DNA from: Ketobacter alkanivorans
GTDB lineage: Bacteria > Pseudomonadota > Gammaproteobacteria > Pseudomonadales > Ketobacteraceae
DNA length: 64,000 bases
Direction: 5' to 3'
NCBI RefSeq assembly: GCF_002863865.1
Contig: NZ_CP022684.1
Location: forward strand, 2,137,501 to 2,201,500
Shown here: positions 39,683-53,579 of the stretch, piece by piece
Layout: each line of letters opens with the position of its first letter
Numbering within the stretch: the stretch's first letter is position 1
Notes under the pieces: model-generated
Seen by the model: only the letters and a program-made list of their open reading frames with translations
Databases searched by the model: none
What the model was told of the DNA's origin: nothing
Translations under genes and position numbers: made by a program

Positions 39683-40930
39683 ATGTTTCGATTCCGATGT
39701 CTAGCCTTTTTCAGCTTATTGTGGCCTATCTTAACCACTGCCGCCATGAGCAGCGAAGATTGGCAAGTATCTGGCTTTACATCGCTGGGCCTGGGCCGCA
39801 TGCAGGAGCCCGGCCTGGAGTTTTTGGGCTACGATAACGAAAAGTGGCGCGCCAAGGGTGACAGCGTTTTAGGCTTGCAGCTAAATGCCGACATGGCAGA
39901 ACGGCTGTCAATGACACTGCAAGTGGTCAGCCGGGGCTACAATCAGGATGACACCAACAGCTTTGAACCCGAACTGGATTGGTTGTTTTTAAGTTACCAC
40001 CTGAACAGCGCCTGGCGAATTCGCATCGGCCGTATGCGCACACCACACTATCTGTACTCCGAAACTGTGGATGTGGGTTACTCCTATGTCTGGGCCCGCC
40101 CTCCCATCGACGTGTATTCCACCATCCTCTCAACTTTTAGCTATTTTGATGGCGCTGATATTCGCTATCTCACCCACAGCAACAATGTCGACATTGATCT
40201 GCAATTGTTCTCCGGCTATATGAAACGCTCCCGTGACAACCTTGAGATCAAAGTAGAGCCCATGATTGGCGGCAACATCAGCCTGCAGTGGGAGCAATGG
40301 AAGCTGCGTTATGGGCTCATTTACGATCGCACCGACATTCGGCTACAACCAACAGCAAACTTTGAAAGCAATCTGGAAGCAGTGATTGCATTCGATTCTA
40401 GCTATCAATCAGTGAAGGACGCGTTAAACGCCGATGACGCTTGGTATCGCTACCAAACATTGGGGCTGCACTGGGATGGAGAGCCTGTTGCCATCATCAG
40501 CGAAGTATTCGACATCAAAAACACCGATGACGGTTTTCAAAACGATGCCCATGGCTGGTACCTGTCTGCGCATATGCCACTGGGGAAGTTCACCCCCTAC
40601 CTGGTACGGGGTGCTTTCACCAACGAATACAACCTGGATGCCTTCGCCACAGTAAACAACAGCCTGCAATCTTTCCCAACCGGGCAACCGGGCTACGAGG
40701 GCTTTGATGCCTTTCGTCTGCAAGCGCTCAATCGCCTGGAGCTGAACAACTACGATCAAAGCACCTGGACACTGGGCTTACGCTATGACTTGATGTCTAA
40801 CGTAGCCCTGAAAGCCGAGTGGCAACGCTTCGATTTCCATAGCAATTCCAGCGGGCAGATTACACGGAACGCTCAAGATACTTCCAGCCATGCGGCACTC
40901 ACAACGCTTATAATCGATGTGGTGTTTTAA
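39683..40930 (+). CDS. Outer-membrane porin (copy 2)
   Basis: The protein has 415 residues with a signal peptide (cleavage near TTAAMS) and a beta-barrel pattern ending in a C-terminal Phe (LIIDVVF). Unlike the copy at 11390 it lacks the coiled coil after the signal. The shared block SETVDVGYSYVWARPPIDV is nearly the same as in copy 1, as is the preceding RIGRMRTPHYLY. Its stop codon overlaps the start of the PstS-like gene (TAATG). The pair probably acts together in uptake or sensing of an anion. Start support is only moderate, since no strong ribosome-binding site precedes it. Confidence 0.75.
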   Translation: MFRFRCLAFFSLLWPILTTAAMSSEDWQVSGFTSLGLGRMQEPGLEFLGYDNEKWRAKGDSVLGLQLNADMAERLSMTLQVVSRGYNQDDTNSFEPELDWLFLSYHLNSAWRIRIGRMRTPHYLYSETVDVGYSYVWARPPIDVYSTILSTFSYFDGADIRYLTHSNNVDIDLQLFSGYMKRSRDNLEIKVEPMIGGNISLQWEQWKLRYGLIYDRTDIRLQPTANFESNLEAVIAFDSSYQSVKDALNADDAWYRYQTLGLHWDGEPVAIISEVFDIKNTDDGFQNDAHGWYLSAHMPLGKFTPYLVRGAFTNEYNLDAFATVNNSLQSFPTGQPGYEGFDAFRLQALNRLELNNYDQSTWTLGLRYDLMSNVALKAEWQRFDFHSNSSGQITRNAQDTSSHAALTTLIIDVVF

Positions 40931-41370
40931 TGTCAGGAAGAGGCTTTTCCCGCGCTATCACATTATTAGCCAGCCTGCTGTTCATACCGTGGGCATGGGC
41001 TGATCTCGCCATCATTGTGCACCCGGACAACCCGCAGCAAAGTATCAGCAAGCACGAGTTGCGACTGATCTTTCTTGGCCGCATGCCGCTTTTTCCTACC
41101 AGCGGAGAGGAGATCATTGCTTTTGACTTACCCGAATCCGATTCCGGCTATGAAACCTTTTACCGTAATGTGGTTGAGCTGGAGGGCACCCGACTAAAAC
41201 GCTATCGCGCTTATTACTTGTTCAGCGGCCGGGGTAAACTGCCACGACCAACGGATTCGAATGCAACCATTTTGCAGCAGGTGGCCGACAATGAACGGGC
41301 CATTGGTTACGTCGACAGCCGGTTAGTGAATGAGAAAGTAAAGGTCCTGCTGACTCTGCCAGAGCGCTAG
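40930..41370 (+). CDS. Short PstS-like periplasmic substrate-binding protein (copy 2)
   Basis: The protein has 146 residues, with a signal peptide (cleavage near AWA) and the same one-lobe plan as the copy at 12582: IIVHPDNP, then LIFLGRMPLFPTSGEEIIAFDLPE, RYRAYYLFSGRG and NERAIGYVDS. It is translated from an ATG overlapping the porin stop, so it is tightly coupled to it. No ABC transporter genes accompany it, so a sensing or scavenging role with the porin or the adjacent kinase is possible. Sequence drift from copy 1 suggests an old duplication or independent acquisition. Confidence 0.72.
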   Translation: MSGRGFSRAITLLASLLFIPWAWADLAIIVHPDNPQQSISKHELRLIFLGRMPLFPTSGEEIIAFDLPESDSGYETFYRNVVELEGTRLKRYRAYYLFSGRGKLPRPTDSNATILQQVADNERAIGYVDSRLVNEKVKVLLTLPER

Positions 41371-41386
41371 TATCCCACCCCATTAT

Positions 41387-41403
41387 TGAGCATGTGCTTA
41401 ATT
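41387..41403 (+). promoter_or_regulatory. 17-base element shared with the fadL upstream region (candidate operator)
   Basis: TGAGCATGTGCTTAATT lies 86 bases before the DUF7064 start. The same 17 bases occur on the opposite strand 35 bases before the fadL-like start. The core AGCA-TG-TGCT is an inverted repeat that extends with 7 of 8 matches (ATTGAGCA against TGCTTAAT), as expected for a dimeric repressor site. The TetR-family gene between the two targets is the obvious candidate binder. Confidence 0.6.
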
Positions 41404-41488
41404 TATTTTATGCTCCCCCTTGCCATCGGATTTCCGAATAGGCAAACTGACCAATTAGTCACGCTTGTGGTATCAAAGGGGAATTCTT

Positions 41489-42535
41489 ATGGACTTGGGC
41501 AAAAACGCCACGATCCGCTTACGGCCTGAAGACGAATACATGCATCCCATTGAGGCGGCGCATAATTTCAACGAAAGCATGTACATTAACCTGTTTGATC
41601 ACCGGCAACGCTGCGGTGGTTGGTTTCGGGTGGGCAATCGCCCCAACGAAGGGTACGCTGAGATGTCATTCTGCTTCTACCTGCCCAATGGCAAAGTGGC
41701 TTTCATGTTCCAGCGCCCCCAAATCCAGAACAATGATGCTCTGGATGCCGGTGGCATGGCATTCAACATCTTAGAACCCCTGAAATCCCTGCGCCTCACC
41801 TACTCGGGGGAGGCTGTTCTGCTGGATAACCCCCAGCAGATGGACAACCCTAAAGCGGCCTTTACCAACAACCCCAAAGTCAGCGCCAGTGCAGAGATCA
41901 CCTTTACCGGCTTTACCCCGGTTTATGGCGGTGAGGCTCTGGATGAGAACGGTAACCCCATTGAAGAAGATCCGGACGAATCGTTCGCCCGCGCGCACTA
42001 CGAACAACACATGCGCGGCATCGGTACGGTCACCATCGGCGAGGAACGTTTCGAACTCAGCGGGCTGGGCCTGCGGGATCACTCCTGGGGCCCGCGCTAC
42101 TGGCAGAATCTGTACTGGTATCGCTGGCTGCCCATGGTGTTCAGCGAGCAACTGGCCATTAATATCTCCATCGTACAAATGGCCAGTGGTCGCCAGCACA
42201 TCTGGGGCATGGTGTATGACTCACGCGACGGCGGGCCTGCCGAGTACGATCTGATCGAAAGCGCAGAACTCAGCTCAGTTCTGGACGCACATCATCAGGC
42301 TCAGTCCCAGCAAGCCAGCATCTGCACCGTGAGCGGCCGCCGCTATCAGATTAAAGGTGAATCACTGTCTCTGATACCCCTGCGCAATCGCCGTCAGACC
42401 GACAGCGGAGAATGGCGCAACACCCGAATCACCGAAGCCATGTCACGCTTTGAATGCGACGGGCTGGTGGGCTATGGCATGTCGGAATACCTGGATCAGA
42501 TGATTGATGGGAAACCCGTAGGCATTGCCTGTTGA
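41489..42535 (+). CDS. DUF7064/CrtC-like lipocalin-fold protein
   Basis: The ATG at 41489 follows AAAGGGG by 7 bases and gives 348 residues; an earlier start at 41465 lacks a site. There is no signal peptide. Patterns such as DHRQRCGGWFRVGNRPNEGYAEMSF, GLRDHSWGPRYW and SRFECDGLVGYGMSEYLDQM recall proteins annotated as hydroxyneurosporene synthase-like/DUF7064. These have two lipocalin-like halves and no firmly known chemistry, and often sit beside APH-fold phosphotransferases. Here the next gene is exactly that, 7 bases after the stop. A role in binding or modifying a hydrophobic terpenoid or fatty acid is inferred. Confidence 0.65.
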   Translation: MDLGKNATIRLRPEDEYMHPIEAAHNFNESMYINLFDHRQRCGGWFRVGNRPNEGYAEMSFCFYLPNGKVAFMFQRPQIQNNDALDAGGMAFNILEPLKSLRLTYSGEAVLLDNPQQMDNPKAAFTNNPKVSASAEITFTGFTPVYGGEALDENGNPIEEDPDESFARAHYEQHMRGIGTVTIGEERFELSGLGLRDHSWGPRYWQNLYWYRWLPMVFSEQLAINISIVQMASGRQHIWGMVYDSRDGGPAEYDLIESAELSSVLDAHHQAQSQQASICTVSGRRYQIKGESLSLIPLRNRRQTDSGEWRNTRITEAMSRFECDGLVGYGMSEYLDQMIDGKPVGIAC

Positions 42536-42542
42536 GGCCGCT

Positions 42543-43529
42543 ATGACCCCGGACATCGTGCAACAAGCGCTGCAGCCCATCGTAACCCGAACCCTGGGCA
42601 AGCAGTGGAACATCACCCAATGTCGCCGCCTTACAGCCGGAGCCTCCGCCGCCACCTGGCTGATCGAAACCAACGTTGAGGATCTGATTCTACGGTTGGA
42701 GTCAGGTGCCGAGCAGTTTGGCACCGGCGTCGGTAAAACGGTGGAAGCAAAAACCCAACAGGCAGCAGGCAAAGCCGGTGCTCCTGTGGCACAGGTTTAC
42801 CATATTCTGGAAGCGCACCCGCAGCTGGGCAACGGCTACCTGATGGCCAAGCTGACCGGAGAATCACTGGCACCCAAAATATTAAAAGATCCCCAGCTGG
42901 AATCAGCTCGCCTGCGGCTCACCGCCCAATGCGCTCAAGCACTGGCGACTATTCATAGTGTCCCCGCCGCACAAACGGCGTTTTTGCCACTGCAAGACGC
43001 AACCACACAGTTAAGCAGTTTGAAATCAATCCATGAAGGTTTTGGCGAAACCTTGCCGGTGTTCACCCTGGCGCTGCGCTGGCTGCAGGACAACATTCCA
43101 CACTGCCCCAACACGGCATTGGTACACGGCGATTTTCGTCTGGGCAATTTTCTGGTAAATGAAAACGGCCTCAACGGCATTCTGGATTGGGAGCTGACTC
43201 ATCTGGGTGACCCCATGGAAGATTTGGGCTGGCTTTGTGTGCGTGCCTGGCGCTTCAGCCGCCCCGATCTGGCAGTGGGTGGCTTTGGCCATCGCTCAGA
43301 ATTGTTCGCCGCCTACGAAGCAGCCAGCGGTGTTACCATCAACCCTGACAGCGTCCGCTACTGGGAGCTGTTCGGCACCCTCAAATGGGGTGTCATCTGC
43401 CAATATCAGGCCTACAGCTTTCTCAACGGCCAGGTGCGCTCGGTCGAACGCGCTGCCATCGGCCGCCGAGTCGCAGAAACCGAATACGACATGATGCAAT
43501 TGTTGCACGACATTGTGGAGGGACGCTGA
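42543..43529 (+). CDS. APH-fold phosphotransferase, LvaA/ACAD10-like
   Basis: The ATG at 42543 has GAGG 5 bases upstream and gives 328 residues. The aminoglycoside-phosphotransferase fold is clear: ATP-binding LTAGASAATWLI, Brenner motif LVHGDFRLGNFLV with catalytic Asp, and GILDWELTHLGDPMEDLGWL with metal-binding Asp. Such kinases, when next to a DUF6285 gene, phosphorylate the 4-hydroxyl of 4-hydroxyacyl-CoA, as LvaA does in P. putida levulinate catabolism and the kinase domain does in ACAD10/11. Its stop overlaps the DUF6285 start. Antibiotic resistance is unlikely in this context. The exact acyl substrate is unknown. Confidence 0.8.
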   Translation: MTPDIVQQALQPIVTRTLGKQWNITQCRRLTAGASAATWLIETNVEDLILRLESGAEQFGTGVGKTVEAKTQQAAGKAGAPVAQVYHILEAHPQLGNGYLMAKLTGESLAPKILKDPQLESARLRLTAQCAQALATIHSVPAAQTAFLPLQDATTQLSSLKSIHEGFGETLPVFTLALRWLQDNIPHCPNTALVHGDFRLGNFLVNENGLNGILDWELTHLGDPMEDLGWLCVRAWRFSRPDLAVGGFGHRSELFAAYEAASGVTINPDSVRYWELFGTLKWGVICQYQAYSFLNGQVRSVERAAIGRRVAETEYDMMQLLHDIVEGR

Positions 43530-43876
43530 TGCCACTGAACCGCCCCAATAAAATCGAACTGCTTGAAGCCGTTAGAGAATATCTGCAACAGACCCCAGAA
43601 GACCCCAAGGTTGATCAATTTTTTCGACGGGTCGCGAGCAATGTATTGGCCATCGTGCAGCGGGAAGAGCACCTGCACGATCAATATATTCAGCAGGAAA
43701 TCATCGCCCTGCAAGCATGCCTGCAAAGTACTGAAACGAATTTATCGACACTGAACCAACAACTGGCGCACGCCATCGAAAGTGGGGATCTGGCAATCAC
43801 GCCCGCACTCACTCACAAGCTGCTTGAATTAGCCCAAGCCAAACTGAATATAGACAACCCAAAATACAAAGGTTAA
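43529..43876 (+). CDS. DUF6285 (LvaB-like) kinase partner
   Basis: The protein has 115 residues, all helical, starting at an ATG that overlaps the kinase stop (TGATG). The pattern RPNKIELLEAVREYL, then FFRRVASNVLAIVQRE, IESGDLAI and the ending KLNIDNPKYKG is what I recall of DUF6285 proteins. These small proteins always accompany an LvaA-like phosphotransferase; LvaB is required for LvaA activity on 4-hydroxyvaleryl-CoA. The call rests on the pattern, the size and the tight coupling. Its role is presumably to complete or stabilise the kinase. Confidence 0.75.
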   Translation: MPLNRPNKIELLEAVREYLQQTPEDPKVDQFFRRVASNVLAIVQREEHLHDQYIQQEIIALQACLQSTETNLSTLNQQLAHAIESGDLAITPALTHKLLELAQAKLNIDNPKYKG

Positions 43877-43951
43877 ACCCAGGCCCTTGTGCGTGCTACC
43901 ATAAAGCCTACAACCCACCCACGCCAAATCGCACCCGATACGGATCAAGCC

Positions 43952-44575
43952 ATGGGACGCACACCGGGCAGGCCCGCTGCCAATGCCAACACCCTTTCAC
44001 GGGATGCGCTACTGGAACATGCCTTCGAGGAGTTCTCCAGCAAGAGCTTCAATGACGTTTCCCTGCGGGCACTGGCTAAAAAACTGAACGTCAGCGATTC
44101 GCTTTTCAATCATCATTTCGGCTCCAAGAACAAGCTCTGGAACGAAGTGGTGGACACGATTATTGAACGTGAATTCCGCCTGCTGATTTCAGAGCTGGAA
44201 CTGGATATCGCATTGGACAATCCGCTTTCCATGCTGCGCAATTATATTGTGGTGATGCTGGAAGTCGCCAAGCGCAAACCGGCCATGTTCAAACTGATTT
44301 TCAGTGGCCTGAATGATGATCACGAGCGCGCCCACTACCTGCGGGACAAGTACATCAAACCCTATCTTAAAACCGTCGATAAAGCGCTTAACCTGTGCAT
44401 TGAGCGCAGTGAGATCCGTAATGTCAGCAATGTTACTCTGCACACCCTGATCTTAGGCTCCGTTGATATGCTTATTCGCCCTGAGTTTGCCCTGCAAGGT
44501 GTCGACGACACCAACAATCAGGGCATTCAGGTTGACGCGCTGGTGGATGTCATCATGCACGGACTGATACCGTAA
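43952..44575 (+). CDS. TetR-family transcriptional regulator
   Basis: The ATG at 43952 gives 207 residues and starts with MGRTPGRPAAN, a basic arm typical of TetR proteins; a GTG at 43889 would add non-conserved residues. The helix-turn-helix is SFNDVSLRALAKKLNVSDSLFNHHFGSKNKLW (about residues 35-66). The ligand domain has the usual all-helical pattern. It is transcribed with the LvaAB-like genes and converges with the FadL-like gene across 3 bases. It most likely controls both, via the shared 17-base element. The ligand may be an acyl-CoA, but this is inferred. Confidence 0.88.
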   Translation: MGRTPGRPAANANTLSRDALLEHAFEEFSSKSFNDVSLRALAKKLNVSDSLFNHHFGSKNKLWNEVVDTIIEREFRLLISELELDIALDNPLSMLRNYIVVMLEVAKRKPAMFKLIFSGLNDDHERAHYLRDKYIKPYLKTVDKALNLCIERSEIRNVSNVTLHTLILGSVDMLIRPEFALQGVDDTNNQGIQVDALVDVIMHGLIP

Positions 44576-44578
44576 TGT

Positions 44579-46228
44579 TTAGAAGCTAGCGGTGTAACTC
44601 AACTCCAGTAGATACGCGGTGGCCTCGCTCGAGAACTCGGTACCCGCGTAGGGATTATAAATAAAGTTATTGAAGTGATCAGAACTGTTGGCATTGGTGC
44701 TGCCTCCGGCAGGCACATGGGCGCTGGCAGTCATATAACCCATACCCACCTCCAACACCTGACTGCCCTGCAACAACCACTCGAAACCCAATGTGTAAAG
44801 CTTGGCATCACCCAACGGCAATAACACATCCTGCTTGTCATTAGGAATCGAGGATTTACGCGGCTCATAACCTGCGCGTAAAGCCAGCCGATCACTGTAA
44901 CGATACTCCACGCCAAAAGCCCAGTTCCAAACGCTCTCATAGTGACGCGGAATCGTCAGCTCGGTTAATTCGGAATAAGGCGACACCAACGTGGCCAACT
45001 TGGTAAAATCCAGCGGCTGATCAAACTCGACTTTCAAACCATCCCAGGCGGCCCAATCGGTCCACTTGGCATCAATATTCAACTGCCATCGAGAAGTGAG
45101 CTGCAGCGCAACGCCGGTGGCAAAATGGGCAGGCGTAATAATCTCCAGCTTTGCATCCCCATATTCAATACCGCGACCATGGGGCGAATCCGCCTGCCCG
45201 GTGGGAAACGCAATGAGCGTATTGATCGCTGAATACAAACCGGAGTTATAAATGCCATCAAAGAAATTCACCCATTCCTCGTTGTATTCCAAACGATAGT
45301 AGCCATCCAGATCCGCAGCACTTTCAAATTGATAAACCATGCCCCAAGTGAGCCAATCCGTAACCTCCCACAACATACCCACATTGAAATTGGGCACCAC
45401 GGCCGTTTCTGCATCGAACTCCAGGCTGGTCACATCGGTGAAAGGCCCAAGCCTGGCACCACCGGGGTCCTGTCCGCAGAAATTGATATAGGGATCAGGA
45501 TCACCAGGGGCCGGACACACCCCCTGATTCTGCAAATCACGGGTCAGGTTCTCACCGAACGCCAACGCCATGTTCGGCACCCGAATTTGAGTCTGGGCGG
45601 TTACCCCCTGCCAGGAGAACCCGAGCGAAGCCCCTACGGATAAACGATCAGTCAGTTCAACAGCAAAAGACGGAGAAAAGTACGTGATCTTCGCCAGGGA
45701 CATGTGCTGCCCCATAAACCGGGCCGGGTCATCTTCATCGCGAATGTAGCCCGCTGCCATGGGCGCATAAACTGCCGTGGCATAAGTCACATCCGTCCCC
45801 ACCGGGTTATAGGAAGCGCCCCCCAACGGCAGAATCAAAACCGGCAGCGGCCACTCGGTGATGCCCTCGGTAAAAGGAATCCGCAAGCCGATGGTGGAGG
45901 TCTCGCTGGTGTTATAGGCCGCTTCATCCACATAACCATTGTTGTCGATGATCGCCTGAGTGGTCTCGTCGTAACCGCCGAATTCAACCGAAAACCCCAT
46001 GGACGCCGCCAGCACTTTGAGATTGAGCTGACGCCCCTTCAAACGAGTCAGGCCTGCCGGGTTGTAATGGATCGAGTCCACGCCAGGTGGGTCGGCTGTC
46101 ACCGCGTTGCCCAACGCTAGCGCCTTGGCGTTGCCCATGGTGAGGTTTTCAACCAGTGCCGCCTGGGTGACAGAGTAAGCAGCCAGACACGCCAGTCCGG
46201 CGAATGTTCGAAATAATCCCTGTTTCAT
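44579..46228 (-). CDS. FadL/OmpP1-type long-chain fatty acid outer-membrane transporter
   Basis: The protein has 549 residues, somewhat longer than E. coli FadL. A signal peptide (cleavage after TQA) is followed by the hallmark plug ALVENLTMGNAKALALGNAVTA, then HYNPAGLTRLKG containing the NPA motif. A 14-strand barrel follows, ending YLLELSYTASF with a C-terminal Phe. FadL proteins let hydrophobic compounds such as fatty acids or aromatic hydrocarbons across the outer membrane. It converges with the TetR gene, and the shared 17-base element lies 35 bases upstream, linking it to the LvaAB-like genes. The ligand may be a hydroxy fatty acid or terpenoid. Confidence 0.88.
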   Translation of the reverse strand: MKQGLFRTFAGLACLAAYSVTQAALVENLTMGNAKALALGNAVTADPPGVDSIHYNPAGLTRLKGRQLNLKVLAASMGFSVEFGGYDETTQAIIDNNGYVDEAAYNTSETSTIGLRIPFTEGITEWPLPVLILPLGGASYNPVGTDVTYATAVYAPMAAGYIRDEDDPARFMGQHMSLAKITYFSPSFAVELTDRLSVGASLGFSWQGVTAQTQIRVPNMALAFGENLTRDLQNQGVCPAPGDPDPYINFCGQDPGGARLGPFTDVTSLEFDAETAVVPNFNVGMLWEVTDWLTWGMVYQFESAADLDGYYRLEYNEEWVNFFDGIYNSGLYSAINTLIAFPTGQADSPHGRGIEYGDAKLEIITPAHFATGVALQLTSRWQLNIDAKWTDWAAWDGLKVEFDQPLDFTKLATLVSPYSELTELTIPRHYESVWNWAFGVEYRYSDRLALRAGYEPRKSSIPNDKQDVLLPLGDAKLYTLGFEWLLQGSQVLEVGMGYMTASAHVPAGGSTNANSSDHFNNFIYNPYAGTEFSSEATAYLLELSYTASF

Positions 46229-46262
46229 AGAACCTGCGCTTGTGTGGTTATTTATTGTTTTT

Positions 46263-46279
46263 AATTAAGCACATGCTCA
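46263..46279 (-). promoter_or_regulatory. 17-base element upstream of the FadL-like gene (candidate operator)
   Basis: On the minus strand this reads TGAGCATGTGCTTAATT, identical to the site at 41387-41403. It ends 35 bases before the FadL-like start, where it would overlap or follow the promoter. The flanking bases differ between the two sites, so the match is confined to the element itself. It is the best evidence that the two transcription units form one regulon. Confidence 0.6.
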
Positions 46280-46352
46280 GTTTATGGGGATTGAATGAGG
46301 AGGACAGGTCGGAACGGGCCAAAATGACTTGCTGGTCACGATCGCAATCAAA

Positions 46353-46376
46353 AAGAGCCGGAATATACCGGCTCTT
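46353..46376 (-). terminator. Intrinsic terminator of btuB
   Basis: AAGAGCCGG and CCGGCTCTT form a 9-bp stem with a 6-base loop, 25 bases after the btuB stop. On the minus strand it is followed by TTTG, giving a short T-tract. Confidence 0.75.
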
Positions 46377-46401
46377 CATCTTTCGGAGAAATCAGATTGG
46401 G

Positions 46402-48243
46402 TTATCTGGGGCTGTAATCCACATAGAACATAGCAAACAACCCTTCTGAATTGTAATTCGTGATCTCTATGTAGTCTTTGTCCAACAGATTATCGATACG
46501 GGTGCGAATGGTCCACTCATCGGTGACATCAAATGAACCACGTAATGCCAATAGGCCATAGCCTGGCAAACGTTCACCTGCATTGTCATATTGCTTGCCT
46601 TGAACATACCAGGAAAATCCGAGCGACCATTTGTCGGTCGATTTGTCCACCTCCAGAGATCCAACCTGACGAGGAGTTAACTGTAAGTCATTATTCGTGA
46701 GCTCGTTAATTGGACGCTGATAAGTCAACGCTACCCCAATATCCAGATCCAATAGGCGTGTACCGTACTGAAACTCCGCGCCTTTAATGCTTACCTGATT
46801 AATGTTTTCAGGGCCGTATATGGCGGGGTTGTAGGCAATCAGATCATCCGCTTTGGTATGGTACACATGAAACGATGCCATTGCAGAATCAAAGAAAGTA
46901 TCCACACCCAATTCAACTGTTCTGGAGTTTTCAGGCTTCAAATTCGGATTGCCATAACCGGGATAGTACAAATCATTATTGGAAGGCGCCTTAAACGCCT
47001 CACCATAGGTTAGTGACATTTTAGTGTCTTCACTAAACCGAAAGGCGACACCGCCATCACCGGTCAGTTCGCTGCCAAACACCTCATCATCATCGTGCCT
47101 CACGCCGCCTTCCAAAGTGAACACGCCAAGGGTAGAGCTTGCGTTCAGATAACCGGAGAACCGGTCTCGATCAGTGCGATCGTAATCAGCGTACCCCAGG
47201 TCGTAACTGGCATCTTCAACGTCGTAATCAACGCCAAAGCTCACTCGATTGGAATCATCAACTTGATAGGTATTTTCCCAGCTCGCCTGATCTCTGATCA
47301 CCTTGCCATGACCATAGTTATACACATTAAACGGGTCATCGCTGATGTATTCTTCGTTGAAGCGGCCGTATTGCAACTTACTGATCAAGTGGTCTAAGTT
47401 GAGTTCAGCGCCGACGGTTGCAAGTAAAGAATCAGACTCAGTGGATGGATAACCGTAATAACCATCCCAATCAAGGGCAGATTCATTTCGCACCAACGAA
47501 ACAAAACCATCGATTTGGTCAGAAAAACTGGCTACGCCCTTGTACGAAAGGTTCGACTTGCGATATCCATCGTCATCATAGTCAATCCAATCCAGCCCCA
47601 TATAGTGGTCATCTGAATACTGATTATCGAAGCCATCGGATTCTACGTGAGACAAGGAAAGGCTATAGGTTGAACTATCGGTAGAACCCGTGGCCGTCAC
47701 TGAGCCTTCGCGGGTGTTATCACTGCCGTAACCCGCACTATAACGTACACCATCTTTTTTCCCTGAGCGGGTAAATATCTGGATGACACCCCCCAAAGCT
47801 GCTGAGCCATACAAGCTGGATTTGGGGCCCCGTACGATTTCAATACGCTCAATCTGGTCAACCGGAATTTGCTGAATATCCACGTCACCGCTGGTGCCGC
47901 TCTCGATACGCACACCGTCCACCAAGACCAGCGTTCCAGAAGCACCCATTCCGCGCAGGCTCACACTGCTGTTGGCACCACGACCACCACGCCGACGCAC
48001 ATTTACGCCAGGAACCGTCTTTAAAACCTGATACAGGTTTCTAGCCTGAGTACGTTGAATATCTTCTTCCGTAATTACGGTGGTGGAGGCCAACGTATCT
48101 TTTAACGCAACCGGGGCGCGTGATGCAGTCACCACCACCTCATCCCCCATCATGGGCGTATAGGCCGCCATCTGAAGGTTTTCTTCTGCATAGGAATGTG
48201 AAACAACAACACCGAAACCGGCAACGAACAATCGCAACTTCAT
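46402..48243 (-). CDS. btuB: TonB-dependent vitamin B12 receptor BtuB
   Basis: The protein has 613 residues, the usual BtuB length. Signal peptide (cleavage near SYA), a TonB-box-like GDEVVVTASRAP, and a plug domain with VLKTVPGVNVRRRGGRGANSSVSLRGMGASGTLVLVDGVRI and IERIEIVRGPKSSLYGSAALGGVIQI precede the barrel. The C-terminus ends FAMFYVDYSPR, without the usual terminal aromatic. The cobalamin riboswitch immediately upstream confirms B12 as substrate. It takes cobalamin into the periplasm using TonB energy. No BtuCDF transporter genes adjoin it. Confidence 0.93.
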   Translation of the reverse strand: MKLRLFVAGFGVVVSHSYAEENLQMAAYTPMMGDEVVVTASRAPVALKDTLASTTVITEEDIQRTQARNLYQVLKTVPGVNVRRRGGRGANSSVSLRGMGASGTLVLVDGVRIESGTSGDVDIQQIPVDQIERIEIVRGPKSSLYGSAALGGVIQIFTRSGKKDGVRYSAGYGSDNTREGSVTATGSTDSSTYSLSLSHVESDGFDNQYSDDHYMGLDWIDYDDDGYRKSNLSYKGVASFSDQIDGFVSLVRNESALDWDGYYGYPSTESDSLLATVGAELNLDHLISKLQYGRFNEEYISDDPFNVYNYGHGKVIRDQASWENTYQVDDSNRVSFGVDYDVEDASYDLGYADYDRTDRDRFSGYLNASSTLGVFTLEGGVRHDDDEVFGSELTGDGGVAFRFSEDTKMSLTYGEAFKAPSNNDLYYPGYGNPNLKPENSRTVELGVDTFFDSAMASFHVYHTKADDLIAYNPAIYGPENINQVSIKGAEFQYGTRLLDLDIGVALTYQRPINELTNNDLQLTPRQVGSLEVDKSTDKWSLGFSWYVQGKQYDNAGERLPGYGLLALRGSFDVTDEWTIRTRIDNLLDKDYIEITNYNSEGLFAMFYVDYSPR

Positions 48244-48429
48244 GCAATACCCCTAAATGTAAAAAACAAAGGACAACGTGAGTCCCGAAGGGCTGCAATC
48301 AGCACAAAAAGGTAAGCACAACAGAGCCTATCCGCCTTCGGAAACCACACTGGGTATCGTCACCGTGACGGTATACGCACCAATAAAAACCCGTTACTGG
48401 TAGGTGACGAGCACGCATCACTGCACAGG
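48244..48429. other. btuB leader between riboswitch and start codon
   Basis: No gene is visible here. The stretch contains inverted repeats such as the GTCACCGTGAC palindrome near 48359-48369, likely the expression platform (terminator or RBS-sequestering hairpin) of the riboswitch. Confidence 0.5.
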
Positions 48430-48625
48430 CAGTTTGATCCGTGTGATGGCAGGTCTCCTGGCTTGCGTGTCATCGCGTTTTTCGGCCTTCCCAGTTTCCC
48501 AGTGGCCGTGGGTGAAAAACGCTCTTCGCTTACAGTTGCGGGGACAGCCGCGGACTCCACATCCCGAGTTATATCGGGGTAGTTTCACCGCGTTCCCATT
48601 TAATCCTTCGCAGGAACCATCGGCG
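48430..48625 (-). ncRNA. Cobalamin riboswitch controlling btuB
   Basis: On the minus strand the leader contains the core elements in order: GGGAACGCGGTGAAA, then GGCTGTCCCCGCAACTGTAA-like sequence in the 48530s, then a CCACTGGG-type arm, then the B12 box AGCCAGGAGACCTGCC at 48463-48448. This order and sequence are those of cobalamin (AdoCbl) riboswitches. About 205 bases separate the B12 box from the btuB ATG. When B12 is abundant, binding should repress btuB. The exact 5' and 3' limits are estimates. Confidence 0.93.
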
Positions 48626-48706
48626 GCCTAGTCTAGGGATTGCGACGCATTAGTCAAGGAATTCAGTGCTAAACTGATTAGCAGCAATCCACTTTTGAGG
48701 TGAATT

Positions 48707-48964
48707 ATGGGCCGCCCCACGAAACAAGAACTGACCGAAGCACTGGCCGAAGCAGCACGTATGCGGGAACAAGGACAAGACCCAAACCACATAGCCAAGT
48801 CATTGTTAAATCACGATTATCGTCTGAAACTGCTGGAACAACTGTACGATCAGGTGGAGCATTATCTGCGCTCAGGTCAGAGCAGCACAGAACACAGCAA
48901 ACTCACCCGGCTGATGGAAAAGGTCCGCAGCGAAGAGCGCCACCCAGGGCTGGACTCGCACTAG
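48707..48964 (+). CDS. Small conserved-looking protein of unknown function
   Basis: The ATG at 48707 has GAGGTG 6 bases upstream and gives 85 residues. I do not recognise the family with certainty. It begins GRPTKQELTEALAEAARMREQG and has a helical, charged pattern throughout, without signal peptide or membrane helix. The overlapping reading frame at 48700-49005 lacks a supported start and has a low-complexity, Arg/Pro/Thr-rich translation, so it was discarded. The gene lies between the divergent btuB leader and the convergent cmoB. Confidence 0.65.
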   Translation: MGRPTKQELTEALAEAARMREQGQDPNHIAKSLLNHDYRLKLLEQLYDQVEHYLRSGQSSTEHSKLTRLMEKVRSEERHPGLDSH

Positions 48965-48985
48965 GCTTTGCATCATTACAGCGAT

Positions 48986-49951
48986 TTAGGCCTCTGCCAG
49001 AATGATCGCCCGCCGCGGCCCCGGATAACCTTCGATGGTGCGCTGGGGGTCGGAGGGGTCCAGAAAGTCTGGCAGGGATTGAAAGGTCATCCAGTCCGTT
49101 GAGCGCTGTTCTTGCACGCTGGTGGCGGTCACATCCACACAGCGCACGTTCTTGAAGCGAACCTTCTGCAGCCACTGAATCAAGGTCGGCACCGAAGGCA
49201 AAAACCACACATTACCCATCCGAGCGTAACGCCCGTCGGGCACCAGCACCTGGCCCTGCTCTGCCTCGATAATCAAGGTTTCCAGCACCAGCTGCCCACC
49301 GGGGCGCAGTAGATCCCGTAACTCGATCAAATGATCGAAAGGGGAGCGGCGGTGGTACAGCACCCCCATAGAAAACACGGTATCAAAAGCACGCATTTCC
49401 GCCGGCAGATGCTCTATACCCAACGGCAAATGGTATACCGGCTGGGGCCCGGTGAAATGCTCGATGGCACGAAACTGCATCTGAAACAACAAAGAAGGGT
49501 CGACACCGATGGTCATGGCAGCACCCGCCCCCAGCATACGCCACAGGTGGTAACCACTGCCGCAGCCGATATCCAACACAGTGCGCCCGTGCAAGGGGTC
49601 AATATGGGGTGCTAGCCGATCCCATTTCCAGTCCGAGCGCCACTCTGTATCGACATGAACACCGCAAAGCTCGAAAGGCCCCTTACGCCAGGGGTGCAGG
49701 CCTCGCAGACATTGCTCAATTTGCTGGCGGACAGACGCATCACAATCATCGACCTGCCCGACTCGCACGGCGGACGCATCAAAGGCCATGGATGACACCG
49801 CCACTTGGGGCAGCCCGTTCAGCGCCTGCTGCCACCGCTCATAGTCACCGTGCTTGTCGGGCTCAACTGCTGCCAGCATTCGGCTTAGATGATCAGCAAA
49901 AGGGGCCAGTCCGGTTTGGGAGATATGCTTAAAAAATCGTGAATAATCCAT
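48986..49951 (-). CDS. cmoB: tRNA U34 carboxymethyltransferase CmoB
   Basis: The protein has 321 residues, as in E. coli. It transfers the carboxymethyl group of carboxy-SAM to 5-hydroxyuridine at the tRNA wobble position. The N-terminal WQQALNGLP region and PWRKGPFELCGVHVDTEWRSDWKWDRL are family signatures. The SAM-site motif is VLDIGCGSGYHLWRM. It is 17 bases downstream of cmoA and clearly co-transcribed. The C-terminal DFLDPSDPQRTIEGYPGPRRAI tail is typical. Confidence 0.96.
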   Translation of the reverse strand: MDYSRFFKHISQTGLAPFADHLSRMLAAVEPDKHGDYERWQQALNGLPQVAVSSMAFDASAVRVGQVDDCDASVRQQIEQCLRGLHPWRKGPFELCGVHVDTEWRSDWKWDRLAPHIDPLHGRTVLDIGCGSGYHLWRMLGAGAAMTIGVDPSLLFQMQFRAIEHFTGPQPVYHLPLGIEHLPAEMRAFDTVFSMGVLYHRRSPFDHLIELRDLLRPGGQLVLETLIIEAEQGQVLVPDGRYARMGNVWFLPSVPTLIQWLQKVRFKNVRCVDVTATSVQEQRSTDWMTFQSLPDFLDPSDPQRTIEGYPGPRRAIILAEA

Positions 49952-49968
49952 GAATTAACTACATCAGG

Positions 49969-50706
49969 CTATTTAATGGCGATGAATGAGGCAAAGTTAA
50001 AGCACTGAAACCAGCAATATACCTGCTGAAAACCCGCCCTTTGCAGACGCTGAATGTGATCCTGCGCCGATTCAGGTATCAACACATTTTCAATGGCCTG
50101 CCGCTTCTGGCTGATTTCCAGATCGCTGTAGCCGTTAAGGCGTTTGAACTCGTGATGCCAATCGGTAAAACACTCTTGCTGTACTGCCGCAGGCAAGCGA
50201 ACTTTCTCGGATAAAATCAAGCCGCCACCGGGGTTCATGCCGCAGTACAGACGCGCCAGCAAATCTTCGCGCTGGTCTAACGGCACAAACTGCAGGGTGT
50301 AGTTCAAGGCAATAAGCGAGGCATTTTCGATGGGGGTGGACTGAATGTCCTCGCAGCGCAGTTGCACCGGGCTGGGGGACAGATCCGATGCGATATTGCT
50401 GCGACAACGCTCAATCATGGGCTCGGCATTATCCACAGCTACGATGGTAACATCCGGCTGCTGAATATGTCGGCGCAACGCCAAGGTGGCAGCGCCTTGG
50501 GAACAACCCAGATCGTAAACACGGGAGCCTTGCGTGACCAGCTTACTGGCAAAGACTCCCAGCATGGCGATGACCGTTTCATAACCCGGCACCGAACGCC
50601 GAATCATATCCGGAAACACGCTGGCCACCTGCTCATCAAAGGCAAAGTCCACCAGATGAGGCTGGGGTTTGGCAAACAGGGTGTCTTGGGAGGGTTTATC
50701 ACTCAT
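49969..50706 (-). CDS. cmoA: Carboxy-S-adenosyl-L-methionine synthase CmoA
   Basis: The ATG at 50706 gives 245 residues and begins MSDKPSQDTLF, matching the family's N-terminus; a GTG at 50730 would add eight residues. CmoA makes carboxy-SAM from SAM and prephenate for CmoB. FDEQVASVFPDMIRRSVPGYE and VYDLGCSQGAATLALRR are diagnostic, followed by VDNAEPMIERCR. It is followed by cmoB in the same operon. The gene upstream ends 80 bases before it, so it may have its own promoter. Confidence 0.95.
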   Translation of the reverse strand: MSDKPSQDTLFAKPQPHLVDFAFDEQVASVFPDMIRRSVPGYETVIAMLGVFASKLVTQGSRVYDLGCSQGAATLALRRHIQQPDVTIVAVDNAEPMIERCRSNIASDLSPSPVQLRCEDIQSTPIENASLIALNYTLQFVPLDQREDLLARLYCGMNPGGGLILSEKVRLPAAVQQECFTDWHHEFKRLNGYSDLEISQKRQAIENVLIPESAQDHIQRLQRAGFQQVYCWFQCFNFASFIAIK

Positions 50707-50785
50707 GGTAGGCTTCGATACCGGTATCACCTGGGCAGAATGGGTGCATTCTAGCCCGAGGCAACACCAATGCCAAACCGCTTAA

Positions 50786-51475
50786 TCAGCGCTCGGCGGT
50801 GACGATCAGGGTCTCGAAGTAGTTGGCCAAATGCAGCATCTGCTCGTCATCGAGCTTTTTGAACACTTTATTGACCACGCCATGTCCAGCAGCCTGACAG
50901 GTAGCGATCGCGCCATCGGCAATTTTACGCACCACAAAACCGTGCTTGAGCAAGCCAATGGCGCGTTTCATAAGGCCTTCCAGCAACAGATCCACCGTCA
51001 GTGACATCAGCTCGGACAGCTCATCCCGATTGCCCGCCACATCACCGGCCTGGATACCACCAACTACTCGCTTCATGCGGTCGTAAGTCGCTTTATCCAT
51101 CTCGCAACCGGTGCCAGCCTTGCCGTTGTCTGCCTGCTGGGGCCGAATGTAGATTTCATCCACAAAGCTTATCATCGGATCCAGCTCCTGGTTGCTGCGC
51201 TTTTTAAGCAGGTGAGGCATCAACATCTTGGAGGTTTTACCGATCACATCAGCGGTGGAGTGCACCACCTTGGTGGACATATTGCTAAGGCCGATTGCAT
51301 CCACGGTTCCCACCAGAAAGGCATGCAGCATTTCCGGTATGAAATAATCCATGGTGCTTTCCATCAAAGGAACGTGGCTTTCTTTCACGCCCCGCGCGCG
51401 ACGATCCAGCAGTTCAATCGCTGCGCCTTCCAGCTCCTTGGAGGAGGCAAACGCCAGGTAATATTTAGTTGGCAT
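50786..51475 (-). CDS. Unknown protein downstream of acyl-CoA dehydrogenase
   Basis: I do not recognise this 229-residue protein. It has no signal peptide and no obvious catalytic motif. It appears mostly helical, with amphipathic segments such as EMLHAFLVGTVDAIGLSNM and LMSLTVDLLLEGLMKRAIGLLKHGF that could associate with membranes or lipids. It lies 30 bases after the acyl-CoA dehydrogenase gene and is probably in that operon, which suggests a role in acyl-CoA or lipid handling. The start at 51475 is the only good Met. Confidence 0.6.
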   Translation of the reverse strand: MPTKYYLAFASSKELEGAAIELLDRRARGVKESHVPLMESTMDYFIPEMLHAFLVGTVDAIGLSNMSTKVVHSTADVIGKTSKMLMPHLLKKRSNQELDPMISFVDEIYIRPQQADNGKAGTGCEMDKATYDRMKRVVGGIQAGDVAGNRDELSELMSLTVDLLLEGLMKRAIGLLKHGFVVRKIADGAIATCQAAGHGVVNKVFKKLDDEQMLHLANYFETLIVTAER

Positions 51476-51505
51476 GGTGTCTAATCCTGTTTCTTGTTTT
51501 GGTTC

Positions 51506-52708
51506 TTACAAACCCCATTTGAAGAAGTCATGCTTCTCGGACAGATAGTATTTTGACAATACCATCTTGTGGATCTCAGAAGCGCCATCCACCAAACGTG
51601 CCTGTCGGGCGTAGCGGTAGATCCACTCGATTATCGTGTCCTTAGAATAGCCACGGGCACCACACAATTGAATGGCGGTATCGGCAGCCTTGTGCAGCGT
51701 ATCGGCCACTTGAATTTTGGCAATGGATATTTCCTTGCGGGCAAAATCGCCCTGATCCAGTTTCCAGGCAGCATTCATCGTTAACAAGCGGCCAATATGG
51801 ATCTCTTTGGCCACATCCCCCATCATCCACTGCACCCCTTCATGGCCAGACAGGGTGGTGCCGAAGCTCATGCGGTTCTCTACATAACCACCGGCAATTT
51901 CCATGCAGCGTTTGGCCAACCCCAGCCAGCGCATGCAGTGGGTCAGGCGCGCCGTACCCAGTCGGATCTGGGTCACCTTGAGGCCATCGCCTACTTCCAG
52001 CAGGCGGTTTTCATCGGGAATTTCCAGGCCGTCGAATCTCAGTTCACAGTGGCCACCGTGCTCTTCCGGCCCCATGATGGGGATGCGACGCACGATTTCC
52101 CAACCGGGCTGATCCTTATCGAACAGAAAAGCAGTGAGCCCCTTGCGCTCATCATCCGAAGTTTTGGCAACCAGGATAAACGTCTGCGCACCTTCGGCAC
52201 CGGTAATAAACCATTTGCGACCATTCACAATCCACTTGTCGCCCACTTTTTCTGCGCGGGTGTAGGTGAGGCTGGGATCGGAACCGCAGCCGCCATCAGG
52301 CTCGGTCATGGCAAAAGCAGAACGCACCTTGCCATCTATGATGGGCTGCAACCAACGATCTTTCAGTGCGTCGGTTTTCAGGATTTTGTTGAGCACGATC
52401 ATGTTGCCGTCGTCCGGTGGCGCACAGTTAAACGCCACTGGCCCAAAAGGCGAACGGGCGGCTTCTTCATACAGCGCAGCCATGCCCACAATGCCCAAAT
52501 CACGGCCACCGCGCTCTTTCGGTAACTGAAACCCCCACAAACCCTGGGCTTTCGCCTTCTCACGCACGGCCGCCACCACACTTTCTTTCAGGTTTTCATG
52601 CGCATCAAAATTAGCCTTGTCGGATTCCAGTGGAATCACTTCTTTTTCAACAAAATCACGCACCTGCAAACGGGTGGTTTCAATCTCTTGCGGTAAAGTA
52701 AAATCCAT
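51506..52708 (-). CDS. Acyl-CoA dehydrogenase, ACAD10/11 (LvaC)-like
   Basis: The protein has 400 residues with the full acyl-CoA dehydrogenase plan: N-terminal helical domain, FAMTEPDGGCGSDPSLTYTRA (FAD/substrate loop), WIVNGRKWFITGA, and C-terminal QLCGARGYSKDTIIEWIYRYARQARLVDGASEIHKMVL. The DGASEIHK motif and the overall look resemble ACAD10/11 and LvaC, which remove phosphate from 4-phosphoacyl-CoA to give an enoyl-CoA. It is followed by an unknown gene and preceded by an SDR (LvaD-like). Ordinary beta-oxidation of a branched acid is the alternative. Confidence 0.82.
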   Translation of the reverse strand: MDFTLPQEIETTRLQVRDFVEKEVIPLESDKANFDAHENLKESVVAAVREKAKAQGLWGFQLPKERGGRDLGIVGMAALYEEAARSPFGPVAFNCAPPDDGNMIVLNKILKTDALKDRWLQPIIDGKVRSAFAMTEPDGGCGSDPSLTYTRAEKVGDKWIVNGRKWFITGAEGAQTFILVAKTSDDERKGLTAFLFDKDQPGWEIVRRIPIMGPEEHGGHCELRFDGLEIPDENRLLEVGDGLKVTQIRLGTARLTHCMRWLGLAKRCMEIAGGYVENRMSFGTTLSGHEGVQWMMGDVAKEIHIGRLLTMNAAWKLDQGDFARKEISIAKIQVADTLHKAADTAIQLCGARGYSKDTIIEWIYRYARQARLVDGASEIHKMVLSKYYLSEKHDFFKWGL

Positions 52709-52749
52709 AACGCCCTCTGTAAAAAATCAAAATAAAAAGTCGAACCAAT

Positions 52750-53520
52750 TTAGAGCTTGCTGACCGCGTGCCCACCATCCACGGAGATAACGGAGCCGGT
52801 CATATATTTGGAGGCATCCGACGCGAGCAGCAACAGCGGCCCTAACAAATCGTCGATTTCCCCCAGTTGCTTTTGTGGAATACGCTGGATCATGCGCTTG
52901 CCACCATCGGTTTCAAAATAATCACGATTGATATCGGTGAGGATGTAACCGGGGCAGATGGCATTCACTCGAATACCGTAATCCGCCAACTCCAGCGCCA
53001 TTGCCTTGGTCAACTGGATCAGACCCGCCTTGGACGCGCTGTAATGAGCCAGATAACTGGTAACCCGCAACCCCAGCACCGAGGCGATATTGATGATGGA
53101 GCCATGCTTGCCCTGCTCATTCATGCGCCGGGCACCCTCTTGCGCCACCAGAAACGCCCCCTTCAGGTTGGTATCCAATACCTTGTCCCATTCCTCTTCG
53201 GTGATGCCCAACACGGGGTTGCTAAGGCCGATGCCTGCGTTATTCACCACCACATCCACACAGCCAAAAGCGGCTTCCGCCTGGTTGTAGGCCTCCACGA
53301 TGGAATGACGATCCGCCACATCCATGGTCACCGCCAAACAGCGGCCACCATCGCTCTCAATCTCTTCCTCCAACGCCAGCAAAGGGTCTCGACGCCGGGC
53401 CGCCACCACCAACTTGGCCCCCTGCCGGGCCAGCACTGGCGCAAACCGCTGCCCAAAGCCGCTGGAAGCACCGGTAACCAACACCACTTTGCCTGCAAGG
53501 CTGAAATTCACATCACTCAT
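52750..53520 (-). CDS. Short-chain dehydrogenase/reductase (LvaD/FabG-like)
   Basis: The ATG at 53520 has AAGGAT about 10 bases upstream and gives 256 residues. TGASSGFG (residues 16-23), NNAGIG, the Ser in NIASVLG and the YSASK pair are intact. The C-terminal ASKYMTGSVISVDGGH is typical of FabG-like SDRs. It lies 41 bases upstream of the acyl-CoA dehydrogenase and is probably co-transcribed. In the lva pathway the equivalent SDR acts on the hydroxyacyl-CoA with LvaC; that role is inferred here. Confidence 0.82.
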   Translation of the reverse strand: MSDVNFSLAGKVVLVTGASSGFGQRFAPVLARQGAKLVVAARRRDPLLALEEEIESDGGRCLAVTMDVADRHSIVEAYNQAEAAFGCVDVVVNNAGIGLSNPVLGITEEEWDKVLDTNLKGAFLVAQEGARRMNEQGKHGSIINIASVLGLRVTSYLAHYSASKAGLIQLTKAMALELADYGIRVNAICPGYILTDINRDYFETDGGKRMIQRIPQKQLGEIDDLLGPLLLLASDASKYMTGSVISVDGGHAVSKL

Positions 53521-53545
53521 GGCTAAATCCTTATTTTTATAGCTG

Positions 53546-53579
53546 GAATCGGGTTTGAGCATACGGCAAAGCCCGATTC
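53546..53579. promoter_or_regulatory. Imperfect inverted repeat upstream of the SDR-acyl-CoA dehydrogenase operon
   Basis: GAATCGGGTTTG (53546-53557) and CAAAGCCCGATTC (53567-53579) are inverted copies apart from a single extra base, separated by 9 bases. It lies 26 bases upstream of the SDR start. The size and position suit an operator or a 5' hairpin. The spacer contains a TTGAGCAT run matching one half of the 17-base element at 41387, which may be chance. Confidence 0.4.

What the first reader, a model, noticed from the sequence alone, without database searches (positions are those of the whole stretch)
41387..53520. Split Lva-like pathway: kinase pair, FadL and TetR in one unit, ACAD10/11-like dehydrogenase and SDR in another
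LvaA, B, C and D equivalents (APH kinase, DUF6285, ACAD10/11-like dehydrogenase, SDR) all lie within 12 kb, separated by btuB and cmoAB. Together with a FadL porin they could form uptake, phosphorylation, elimination and rehydration of 4-hydroxy fatty acids or terpenoid acids. The DUF7064 protein and the unknown 229-residue protein would be new parts.
Basis: inference. Interest (0 to 1): 0.75.

Follow-up and report, generated by a model that had tools for sequence, protein, structure and literature searches.

The report
Kinase-lyase dehydration module beside orphaned dehydrogenase
Two neighbouring gene groups that looked like one split pathway are likely separate: one encodes a kinase beside a protein of unknown function that is predicted to be a phosphate lyase, so that together they would strip a hydroxyl group from some lipid-like molecule at the cost of ATP, and the other encodes a relative of the enzyme ACAD11 without the kinase genes that stand beside it in many other bacteria.

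Summary
All named genes are present, but they likely do not form one split Lva pathway. Unit A (DUF7064, APH kinase, DUF6285, TetR) is most likely a self-contained ATP-dependent dehydration module. By sequence profile DUF7064 matches one enzyme in the PDB, 25-phosphosteroid lyase (E 1e-7); it shares that fold and the Arg-Asp-x-Ser-Trp-Gly motif. In related genomes the same kinase-DUF6285 pair sits beside an ACAD10/11-like dehydrogenase instead of DUF7064, and orthologues of that dehydrogenase were found in 0 of 15 DUF7064 genomes searched. Two otherwise similar gene clusters differ in which of the two they carry. Unit B (SDR, ACAD) keeps the ACAD10/11 signature residues, but lacks the kinase-DUF6285 pair that 16 of 32 order genomes with this ACAD have next to it. 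The genome has a closer LvaC-type cluster elsewhere. The 229-residue protein tracks cmoAB, not the ACAD. FadL is convergent, on the other strand. Kinase sharing between the units remains possible (10 of 16 genomes lacking the pair carry unit A, against 1 of 16 with it), but six do without it. No activity was tested; the substrate is unknown.

The parts
41489..42535 (+). DUF7065-DUF7064 protein (348 aa), predicted phosphate lyase of the 25-PSL kind; Asp197 in RDHSWGPR is the candidate catalytic residue
   Evidence: PF23212 80.3 bits, PF23213 63.2 bits; profile match to 25-phosphosteroid lyase E 1.1e-7; fold match E 5.6e-15; 18 of 38 covered invariant columns identical
42543..43529 (+). APH-family small-molecule kinase (328 aa) with HGDFRLGN and DWE motifs
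   Evidence: PF01636 109.8 bits; profile matches to 3dxp, 9o56, the ACAD11 chains (kinase part) and 3ats in the PDB; conserved motifs
43529..43876 (+). DUF6285 protein (115 aa), likely kinase partner; start codon overlaps the kinase stop
   Evidence: PF19802 76 bits; overlap read; the one DUF6285 match in the genome
43889..44575 (+). TetR-family regulator, last gene of unit A
   Evidence: PF00440 40.5 bits; kept beside unit A in G010, G012, G014
44579..46228 (-). FadL/TodX outer-membrane channel, convergent with unit A; likely uptake
   Evidence: PF03349 212.8 bits; beside unit A also in G001 and G005 (44-45%)
46402..48243 (-). btuB-like B12 receptor, likely not part of either module
   Evidence: TIGR01779 436.7 bits, below its cut-off of 599.7; cobalamin riboswitch upstream
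   Evidence: neighbourhood conservation with the 229-aa protein; no family search was run on them
50786..51475 (-). 229-aa mostly helical protein of unknown function that tracks cmoAB
   Evidence: no Pfam or NCBIfam match at E <= 0.001; model pLDDT 93.4 without a PDB match at E <= 0.001; kept with cmoAB where the ACAD was not found
51506..52708 (-). ACAD10/11-like acyl-CoA dehydrogenase (400 aa), predicted phosphate-eliminating enzyme
52750..53562 (-). SDR oxidoreductase, first gene of unit B; likely keto/hydroxy interconversion like LvaD
   Evidence: PF00106 202.4 bits; an SDR beside this ACAD in 70 of 80 named loci

Best explanation
The window likely holds two separate modules: unit A (DUF7064, APH kinase, DUF6285, TetR, facing a convergent FadL gene) likely works as an ATP-dependent dehydratase in which the kinase would phosphorylate a hydroxyl group and DUF7064 is predicted to eliminate the phosphate, leaving a C=C bond, while unit B (SDR and an ACAD10/11-like dehydrogenase) is likely the remainder of an Lva-type operon whose kinase-DUF6285 pair is missing here. 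In unit A, DUF6285 would act as the kinase's partner as reported for LvaB with LvaA (that LvaB belongs to DUF6285 is recalled), TetR would control the operon and FadL would admit the hydrophobic substrate. Shown: gene content, the sequence and fold relation of DUF7064 to 25-phosphosteroid lyase, conservation of its motif Asp, the presence of DUF7064 or an ACAD10/11-like enzyme beside kinases of one group, and the missing pair in unit B. Inferred: the catalysis, the roles of DUF6285, TetR and FadL, that the substrate is probably an acyl-CoA thioester or terpenoid-like acid, and that unit B's dehydrogenase now uses a phosphorylated substrate made by another kinase of the cell.
For: The DUF7064 profile finds only 25-PSL in the PDB up to E 1 (1.1e-7 and 5.7e-7); the fold search ranks 25-PSL first (5.6e-15). 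Asp197 is invariant in the 43 homologues aligned and aligns with Asp176 of 25-PSL; the sequence of the product-complex entry 9g4c carries Asn there. A kinase lies next to DUF7064 in 14 of 17 order genomes with a match at E <= 1e-40. Of 32 loci examined beside the window with a window-type kinase, 13 have DUF7064, 13 an ACADx with the HCMR (HAMR in two) and Asp residues, 6 neither arrangement. ACADx orthologues (>=73%) in 0 of 15 DUF7064 genomes. The G001/G005 cluster shares a P450, hydrolase, VOC protein, CoA-transferase, MarR and a membrane protein with the ACADx locus of G276 (L120), and the hydrolase with 10 of 13 ACADx loci. Unit B: the kinase pair is adjacent in 16 of 32 order genomes and a kinase lies within 4 kb in 61 of 80 named loci; R/HCMR/D is kept in all 16 genomes where the pair is missing.
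Confidence: 0.62

Rival explanations
1. One split Lva-like pathway: the kinase-DUF6285 pair of unit A phosphorylates the substrate on which the ACAD10/11-like dehydrogenase of unit B acts, and DUF7064 does something else.
For: Unit A occurs in 10 of 16 order genomes in which the dehydrogenase operon lacks its kinase pair and in 1 of 16 that keep it (Fisher p 0.002, not corrected for kinship). 11 of 15 unit-A genomes have this dehydrogenase. The dehydrogenase keeps its signature residues where the pair is missing. Both units lie within 12-15 kb in four genomes of the genus, the window's included.
Against: Six of 16 genomes without the pair lack unit A and four of 15 unit-A genomes lack this dehydrogenase. 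The units are about 141 and 549 kb apart in G169 and G248. Kinases of the unit-A group stand elsewhere beside another dehydrogenase, ACADx, and none of the loci examined has one beside this one. Unit A has its own predicted lyase.
Confidence: 0.2
2. DUF7064 is a hydratase of the kievitone hydratase/AttH fold class that adds water to a C=C bond and so makes the hydroxyl group which the kinase then phosphorylates; the eliminase lies elsewhere.
Against: By sequence profile only 25-PSL is found in the PDB, and its %identity in the structural alignments is higher (19-20 against 9-13). DUF7064 takes the place of an ACAD10/11-like enzyme in related clusters.
Confidence: 0.12
3. The unit-B dehydrogenase no longer needs a kinase and works on an unphosphorylated substrate; its retained residues are inherited.
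For: Its kinase pair is missing in 16 of 32 order genomes, with no copy of that kinase type at 41% or more elsewhere in them.
Against: Arg, HCMR and Asp are unchanged in all 16 of these genomes. All 16 have a second, LvaC-type dehydrogenase (58% or more to the one at 1.269 Mb), and in the five of them where I looked an APH kinase stands in its cluster (G000, G011, G112, G285, G385) that could supply phosphorylated substrate.
Confidence: 0.15

Closest known systems
25-hydroxysteroid kinase and 25-phosphosteroid lyase of Sterolibacterium denitrificans (25-HSK, 25-PSL)
   Same: A kinase plus a separate lyase carry out ATP-dependent dehydration there (PMC8449060 passages); DUF7064 is related to 25-PSL in sequence and fold and keeps the motif Asp
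   Different: In S. denitrificans the authors found no lyase candidate near the kinase gene; here kinase and lyase genes are neighbours and a DUF6285 gene follows, identity is 20% or less, and several gene contexts point to acyl-CoA metabolism rather than steroids
LvaABCDE levulinic acid pathway of Pseudomonas putida
   Same: APH kinase, small partner protein, ACAD with the phosphate-site residues and SDR are all present in the window
   Different: Two units instead of one operon, no acyl-CoA ligase in them, the dehydrogenase belongs to a different subfamily, and the genome has a closer LvaC-type cluster elsewhere
ACAD10/ACAD11
   Same: Equivalents of Arg626, HCMR and Asp753 in the unit-B dehydrogenase (residues from PMC12440821 passages; alignments)
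   Different: Stand-alone dehydrogenase without a kinase domain or a neighbouring kinase of its usual clade
Rv3167c-Rv3168-Rv3169 of Mycobacterium tuberculosis
   Same: TetR regulator beside a two-gene operon (PMC5340868 passages) whose Rv3169 is related to our DUF7064 (NF053593 match 1.3e-13); that Rv3168 is an APH-fold protein is recalled
   Different: The passages mention no DUF6285 gene, the TetR gene is divergent there, and our DUF7064 scores 50.7 bits against the family cut-off of 150

Membership tests
25-PSL-type phosphate lyase (for DUF7064) | sequence homology to 25-PSL | tested here: met
   profile of 43 homologues against the PDB: 9fzn 1.1e-7, 9g4c 5.7e-7, nothing else up to E 1
25-PSL-type phosphate lyase (for DUF7064) | same fold | tested here: met
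25-PSL-type phosphate lyase (for DUF7064) | conserved motif Asp that is Asn in the product-complex entry | tested here: met
   Asp197 = Asp176, invariant in 43 of 43; its catalytic role is inferred
25-PSL-type phosphate lyase (for DUF7064) | elimination of phosphate from a phosphorylated alcohol | not testable with these tools
   needs an enzyme assay
Lva pathway | APH kinase with catalytic HxD and DWE motifs | tested here: met
   His195, Asp197, Asn202 and Asp215-Trp-Glu invariant in 10 orthologues
Lva pathway | LvaB-like partner | tested here: inconclusive
   DUF6285 present; that LvaB is a DUF6285 protein is recalled, LvaB was not fetched
Lva pathway | dehydrogenase orthologous to LvaC | tested here: not met
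   LvaC itself was not fetched; the window's ACAD is 33% identical to the genome's own LvaC-type ACAD, and its ACAD11 match is 6.7e-60 against 4.3e-138 for that one, while LvaC is reported at 56-62% to ACAD11/10 (PMC11342911 passages)
Lva pathway | kinase, dehydrogenase and SDR in one operon | tested here: not met
   two units on opposite strands with btuB and cmoAB between
ACAD10/11-like dehydrogenase | Arg, HCMR and catalytic Asp | tested here: met
ACAD10/11-like dehydrogenase | use of a 4-phosphoacyl-CoA | not testable with these tools
   needs an enzyme assay
Rv3169 family (NCBIfam NF053593) | score above the curated cut-off | tested here: not met
   50.7 bits against 150
DUF7064 (PF23212) | score above gathering threshold | tested here: met
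   80.3 bits against 24.7

The most novel reading that the evidence does not exclude
DUF7064/DUF7065 is a large family of flavin-free phosphate lyases that work with APH-like kinases, often with DUF6285, as general ATP-dependent dehydratases in acyl-CoA and terpenoid catabolism; they and ACAD10/11-type flavoenzymes are interchangeable eliminases for one kinase module, and the Rv3168-Rv3169 operon is a member of the same kind.
Probability: 0.5. Interest if true: 0.8.

Novelty: new variant of a known kind. Interest (0 to 1): 0.66.

Why it matters
The search with the window's DUF7064 protein found 5844 relatives at E <= 0.001. No paper of the held library contains the terms DUF7064, DUF7065 or DUF6285 (the library lacks most subscription papers), and the three papers listed for Rv3167c-Rv3169 were seen as listings, one in passages, without an enzymatic role for Rv3169. 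A testable assignment as a phosphate lyase would explain why DUF7064 often keeps company with APH-like kinases, would give 25-PSL a wide family, and would show two unrelated chemistries, a flavoenzyme and a flavin-free lyase, exchanging places behind one kinase. It would also turn a poorly understood mycobacterial operon into a concrete biochemical question.

Tried and rejected

Limits: the Fisher values ignore kinship. The 13 ACADx genomes were chosen because the enzyme sits beside their kinase, so only the 0 of 15 is informative; the cut there was E 1e-75, and G005 is 84% complete. Of the 69 kinase places, 53 score above the unit-B type; I looked at 33 of these (the window and 32 loci), not at the other 20. 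Of the 32 order genomes with the window-type dehydrogenase I fetched loci of 28 besides the window itself; G073, G325 and G341 were judged by coordinates only. The kinase tree has only moderate support for the unit-A group (85/80); one DUF7064-linked kinase, L122, falls outside it, and 4 of the 26 unit-B loci sampled (L170, L191, L196, L201) have a kinase of another type. In some searches tblastn thresholds decide presence; short DUF6285 genes are easily missed. Some family genomes without the dehydrogenase are incomplete (G003 87%, G008 54%). Papers were seen as search listings and matched passages only, none in full; Rand et al. 2017 was not held and is cited only through other papers.
Full report
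Setting. The genome is one contig of 4.91 Mb. Contigs of its genus mate G013 have the lengths 629699 and 77942 of contigs under proteins named Ketobacter sp. MCCC 1A13808, so the window most likely comes from Ketobacter. By the same matching, family f43 includes Alcanivorax (42518 bases, A. jadensis T9) and genus g24 is Marinobacter (929368 bases, M. pelagius). This is inference from contig lengths.

Anatomy. On the plus strand DUF7064 (41489-42535), an APH kinase (42543-43529), DUF6285 (43529-43876, start overlapping the kinase stop) and TetR (43889-44575) are spaced by -1 to 12 bases; FadL follows on the minus strand, convergent, 3 bases on. On the minus strand SDR, ACAD, a 229-aa protein, cmoA and cmoB run together with gaps of 17-55 bases; btuB lies beyond a 742-base gap that holds a cobalamin riboswitch.

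The dehydrogenase. Its best PDB matches are ACAD11 structures, ahead of the other ACADs. Passages of PMC12440821 name Arg626, His634 and Arg637 (HCMR) and the catalytic Asp753 of ACAD11; the alignment gives Arg249, HCMR and Asp374 here. In the order sample (390 genomes) orthologues of at least 61% occur in 32, with a gap to 43%. I fetched loci of 28 of these besides the window: the Arg-HCMR-Asp pattern is present in the 25 loci with 67% or more and in the three 61-62% loci when aligned. The genome also has a 404-aa ACAD at 1.269 Mb that is far closer to ACAD11 (4.3e-138) and that lies with an SDR, an APH kinase and a histidine phosphatase, a content like that described for Pseudomonas citronellolis (PMC6692424 passages). 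A relative of it (49% or more) was found in 27 of 29 genomes searched; in the other two, G049 and G184, the only match is the window-type enzyme.

Unit B is a truncated operon. In G002 and G009 of the same family the order is SDR-ACAD-kinase-DUF6285-229aa-cmoA-cmoB. That kinase type (41% or more to the G002 kinase) occurs in 16 of the 32 genomes, each time beside the dehydrogenase and a DUF6285 gene, and in none of the other 16. In G005 and G004 only DUF6285 matches of 60 and 34 residues remain between SDR and the 229-aa gene, and ACAD and kinase are gone. In a scan of named genomes (best 80 of 580 confirmed loci) a kinase lies within 4 kb of the dehydrogenase in 61 of 80, an SDR in 70, DUF6285 within 5 kb in 37 and an acyl-CoA ligase within 8 kb in 36. 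In many Marinobacter loci the set goes on with a ligase and a branched-chain-type ABC transporter. The usual operon is thus an Lva-like set, and the window lacks its kinase pair; that it was lost is inferred from the relatives.

The 229-aa protein. It has no family match and no clear fold match. All 15 genomes of the family searched have relatives of it, paralogues included. In five family members in which the dehydrogenase was not found it still stands beside cmoA and cmoB, and it is near the dehydrogenase in 1 of 80 named loci. It belongs with cmoAB.

Kinase and lyase go together. Among 17 order genomes with a DUF7064 match at E <= 1e-40, 14 have the kinase next to it; G259, G052 and G349 do not. 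On plasmids, of six loci inspected, a kinase is directly beside DUF7064 in Pseudonocardia and, by tblastn, in Cupriavidus, some 3-5 kb away in Variovorax and Sulfitobacter, and not seen in Embleya (unannotated) or Rhodococcus.

Exchange of the eliminase. I examined 32 loci with a window-type kinase besides the window; 20 further places were not looked at. Thirteen have DUF7064 (53% or more), thirteen have instead a third ACAD10/11-like enzyme, here ACADx, with HCMR (HAMR in two) and Asp, and six have neither: four with an ACAD lacking the motif, one with such an ACAD and a 26% DUF7064 relative, one with an LvaC-type ACAD farther off on the other strand. ACADx orthologues of 73% or more are in none of 15 DUF7064 genomes. 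The clusters of G001 and G005 with DUF7064 share with ACADx loci, over and above kinase and DUF6285, a hydrolase (65-69%, 10 of 13 loci), MarR (32-42%, 10 of 13), a VOC protein (48-52%, 9 of 13), P450 (42-45%) and a membrane protein (42-48%, 4 of 13 each) and a CoA-transferase (54-55%, 3 of 13); L120 has all six, L206 and L214 none. In the kinase tree the ACADx-linked kinases form a clade (99/94) beside the DUF7064-linked ones (85/80, L122 outside), and most kinases of unit B's usual operon are apart (99/98). The simplest reading is that DUF7064 does the job of the eliminating ACAD. Against a strict exchange, Sulfitobacter has both side by side.

A linked hydrolase. In the family, this hydrolase is found at 72% or more in all 9 unit-A genomes and in none of the 6 others searched (G009 has a 40% match), although in the window's genome it lies 0.54 Mb away with the VOC and CoA-transferase genes and a gene that looks like HMG-CoA lyase (the last name is my reading of its sequence). 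Outside the family it also occurs without unit A (G285, G303, G352, G229) and is missing or only 39% in the unit-A genomes G259 and G300. This hints at a methyl-branched or ester-linked substrate and is only a hint.

Could the units share the kinase? Unit A is in 10 of 16 genomes whose dehydrogenase operon lacks the pair and 1 of 16 with the full one. Within genus g96 three of five such genomes have unit A and two do not. G011, of the window's genus, has unit B and no unit A. I therefore keep sharing as a rival at 0.2.

Verdict. Unit A: a kinase-lyase module for ATP-dependent dehydration, a variant of the 25-HSK/25-PSL kind with a DUF6285 partner, probability about 0.62. Unit B: an orphaned ACAD10/11-like dehydrogenase with its SDR. 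The substrate is unknown.

Noticed in passing
window 48431-48636 (-): Cobalamin riboswitch upstream of btuB (114.7 bits), so btuB looks like an ordinary B12-controlled receptor gene.
   Followed up: yes
L240 5166-9809: A closer LvaC-type cluster of the same genome at 1.269 Mb: ACAD, SDR, APH kinase, histidine phosphatase, SDR; the genome's one DUF6285 match lies elsewhere, in the window.
   Followed up: partly
L230 1982-2161 and L231 6850-6951: DUF6285 matches of 60 and 34 residues left between SDR and the 229-aa gene where ACAD and kinase are gone.
   Followed up: partly
L109 10566-12026 and its counterparts in L108 and L110: Kinase and DUF6285 lie in one 485-487-aa frame, an apparent natural fusion; many other kinase-DUF6285 matches lie in open frames of 460-505 aa.
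   Followed up: no
L204 9511-10035: A 174-aa probable membrane protein without a Pfam match recurs near unit A in G001, G005 and three Alcanivoracaceae loci and in four ACADx loci.
   Followed up: no
L225 4775-7005: Sulfitobacter alexandrii plasmid with an LvaC-type HCMR dehydrogenase directly upstream of DUF7064, with kinase and ligase in the same cluster.
   Followed up: partly
L135, L138, L141: Corallococcus species carry the window-type dehydrogenase at 79-80% identity with kinase and DUF6285, which suggests horizontal transfer.
   Followed up: no
L241 9548-16134: Hydrolase, VOC protein, CoA-transferase and an HMG-CoA-lyase-like gene of the own genome; the hydrolase co-occurs with unit A in the family.
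   Followed up: partly
window 39683-41370 (+): A 415-aa protein without an NCBIfam match and a 146-aa protein with a weak PBP-like match stand just upstream of unit A; weak relatives (26-29%) occur together near the unit A of G039.
   Followed up: no
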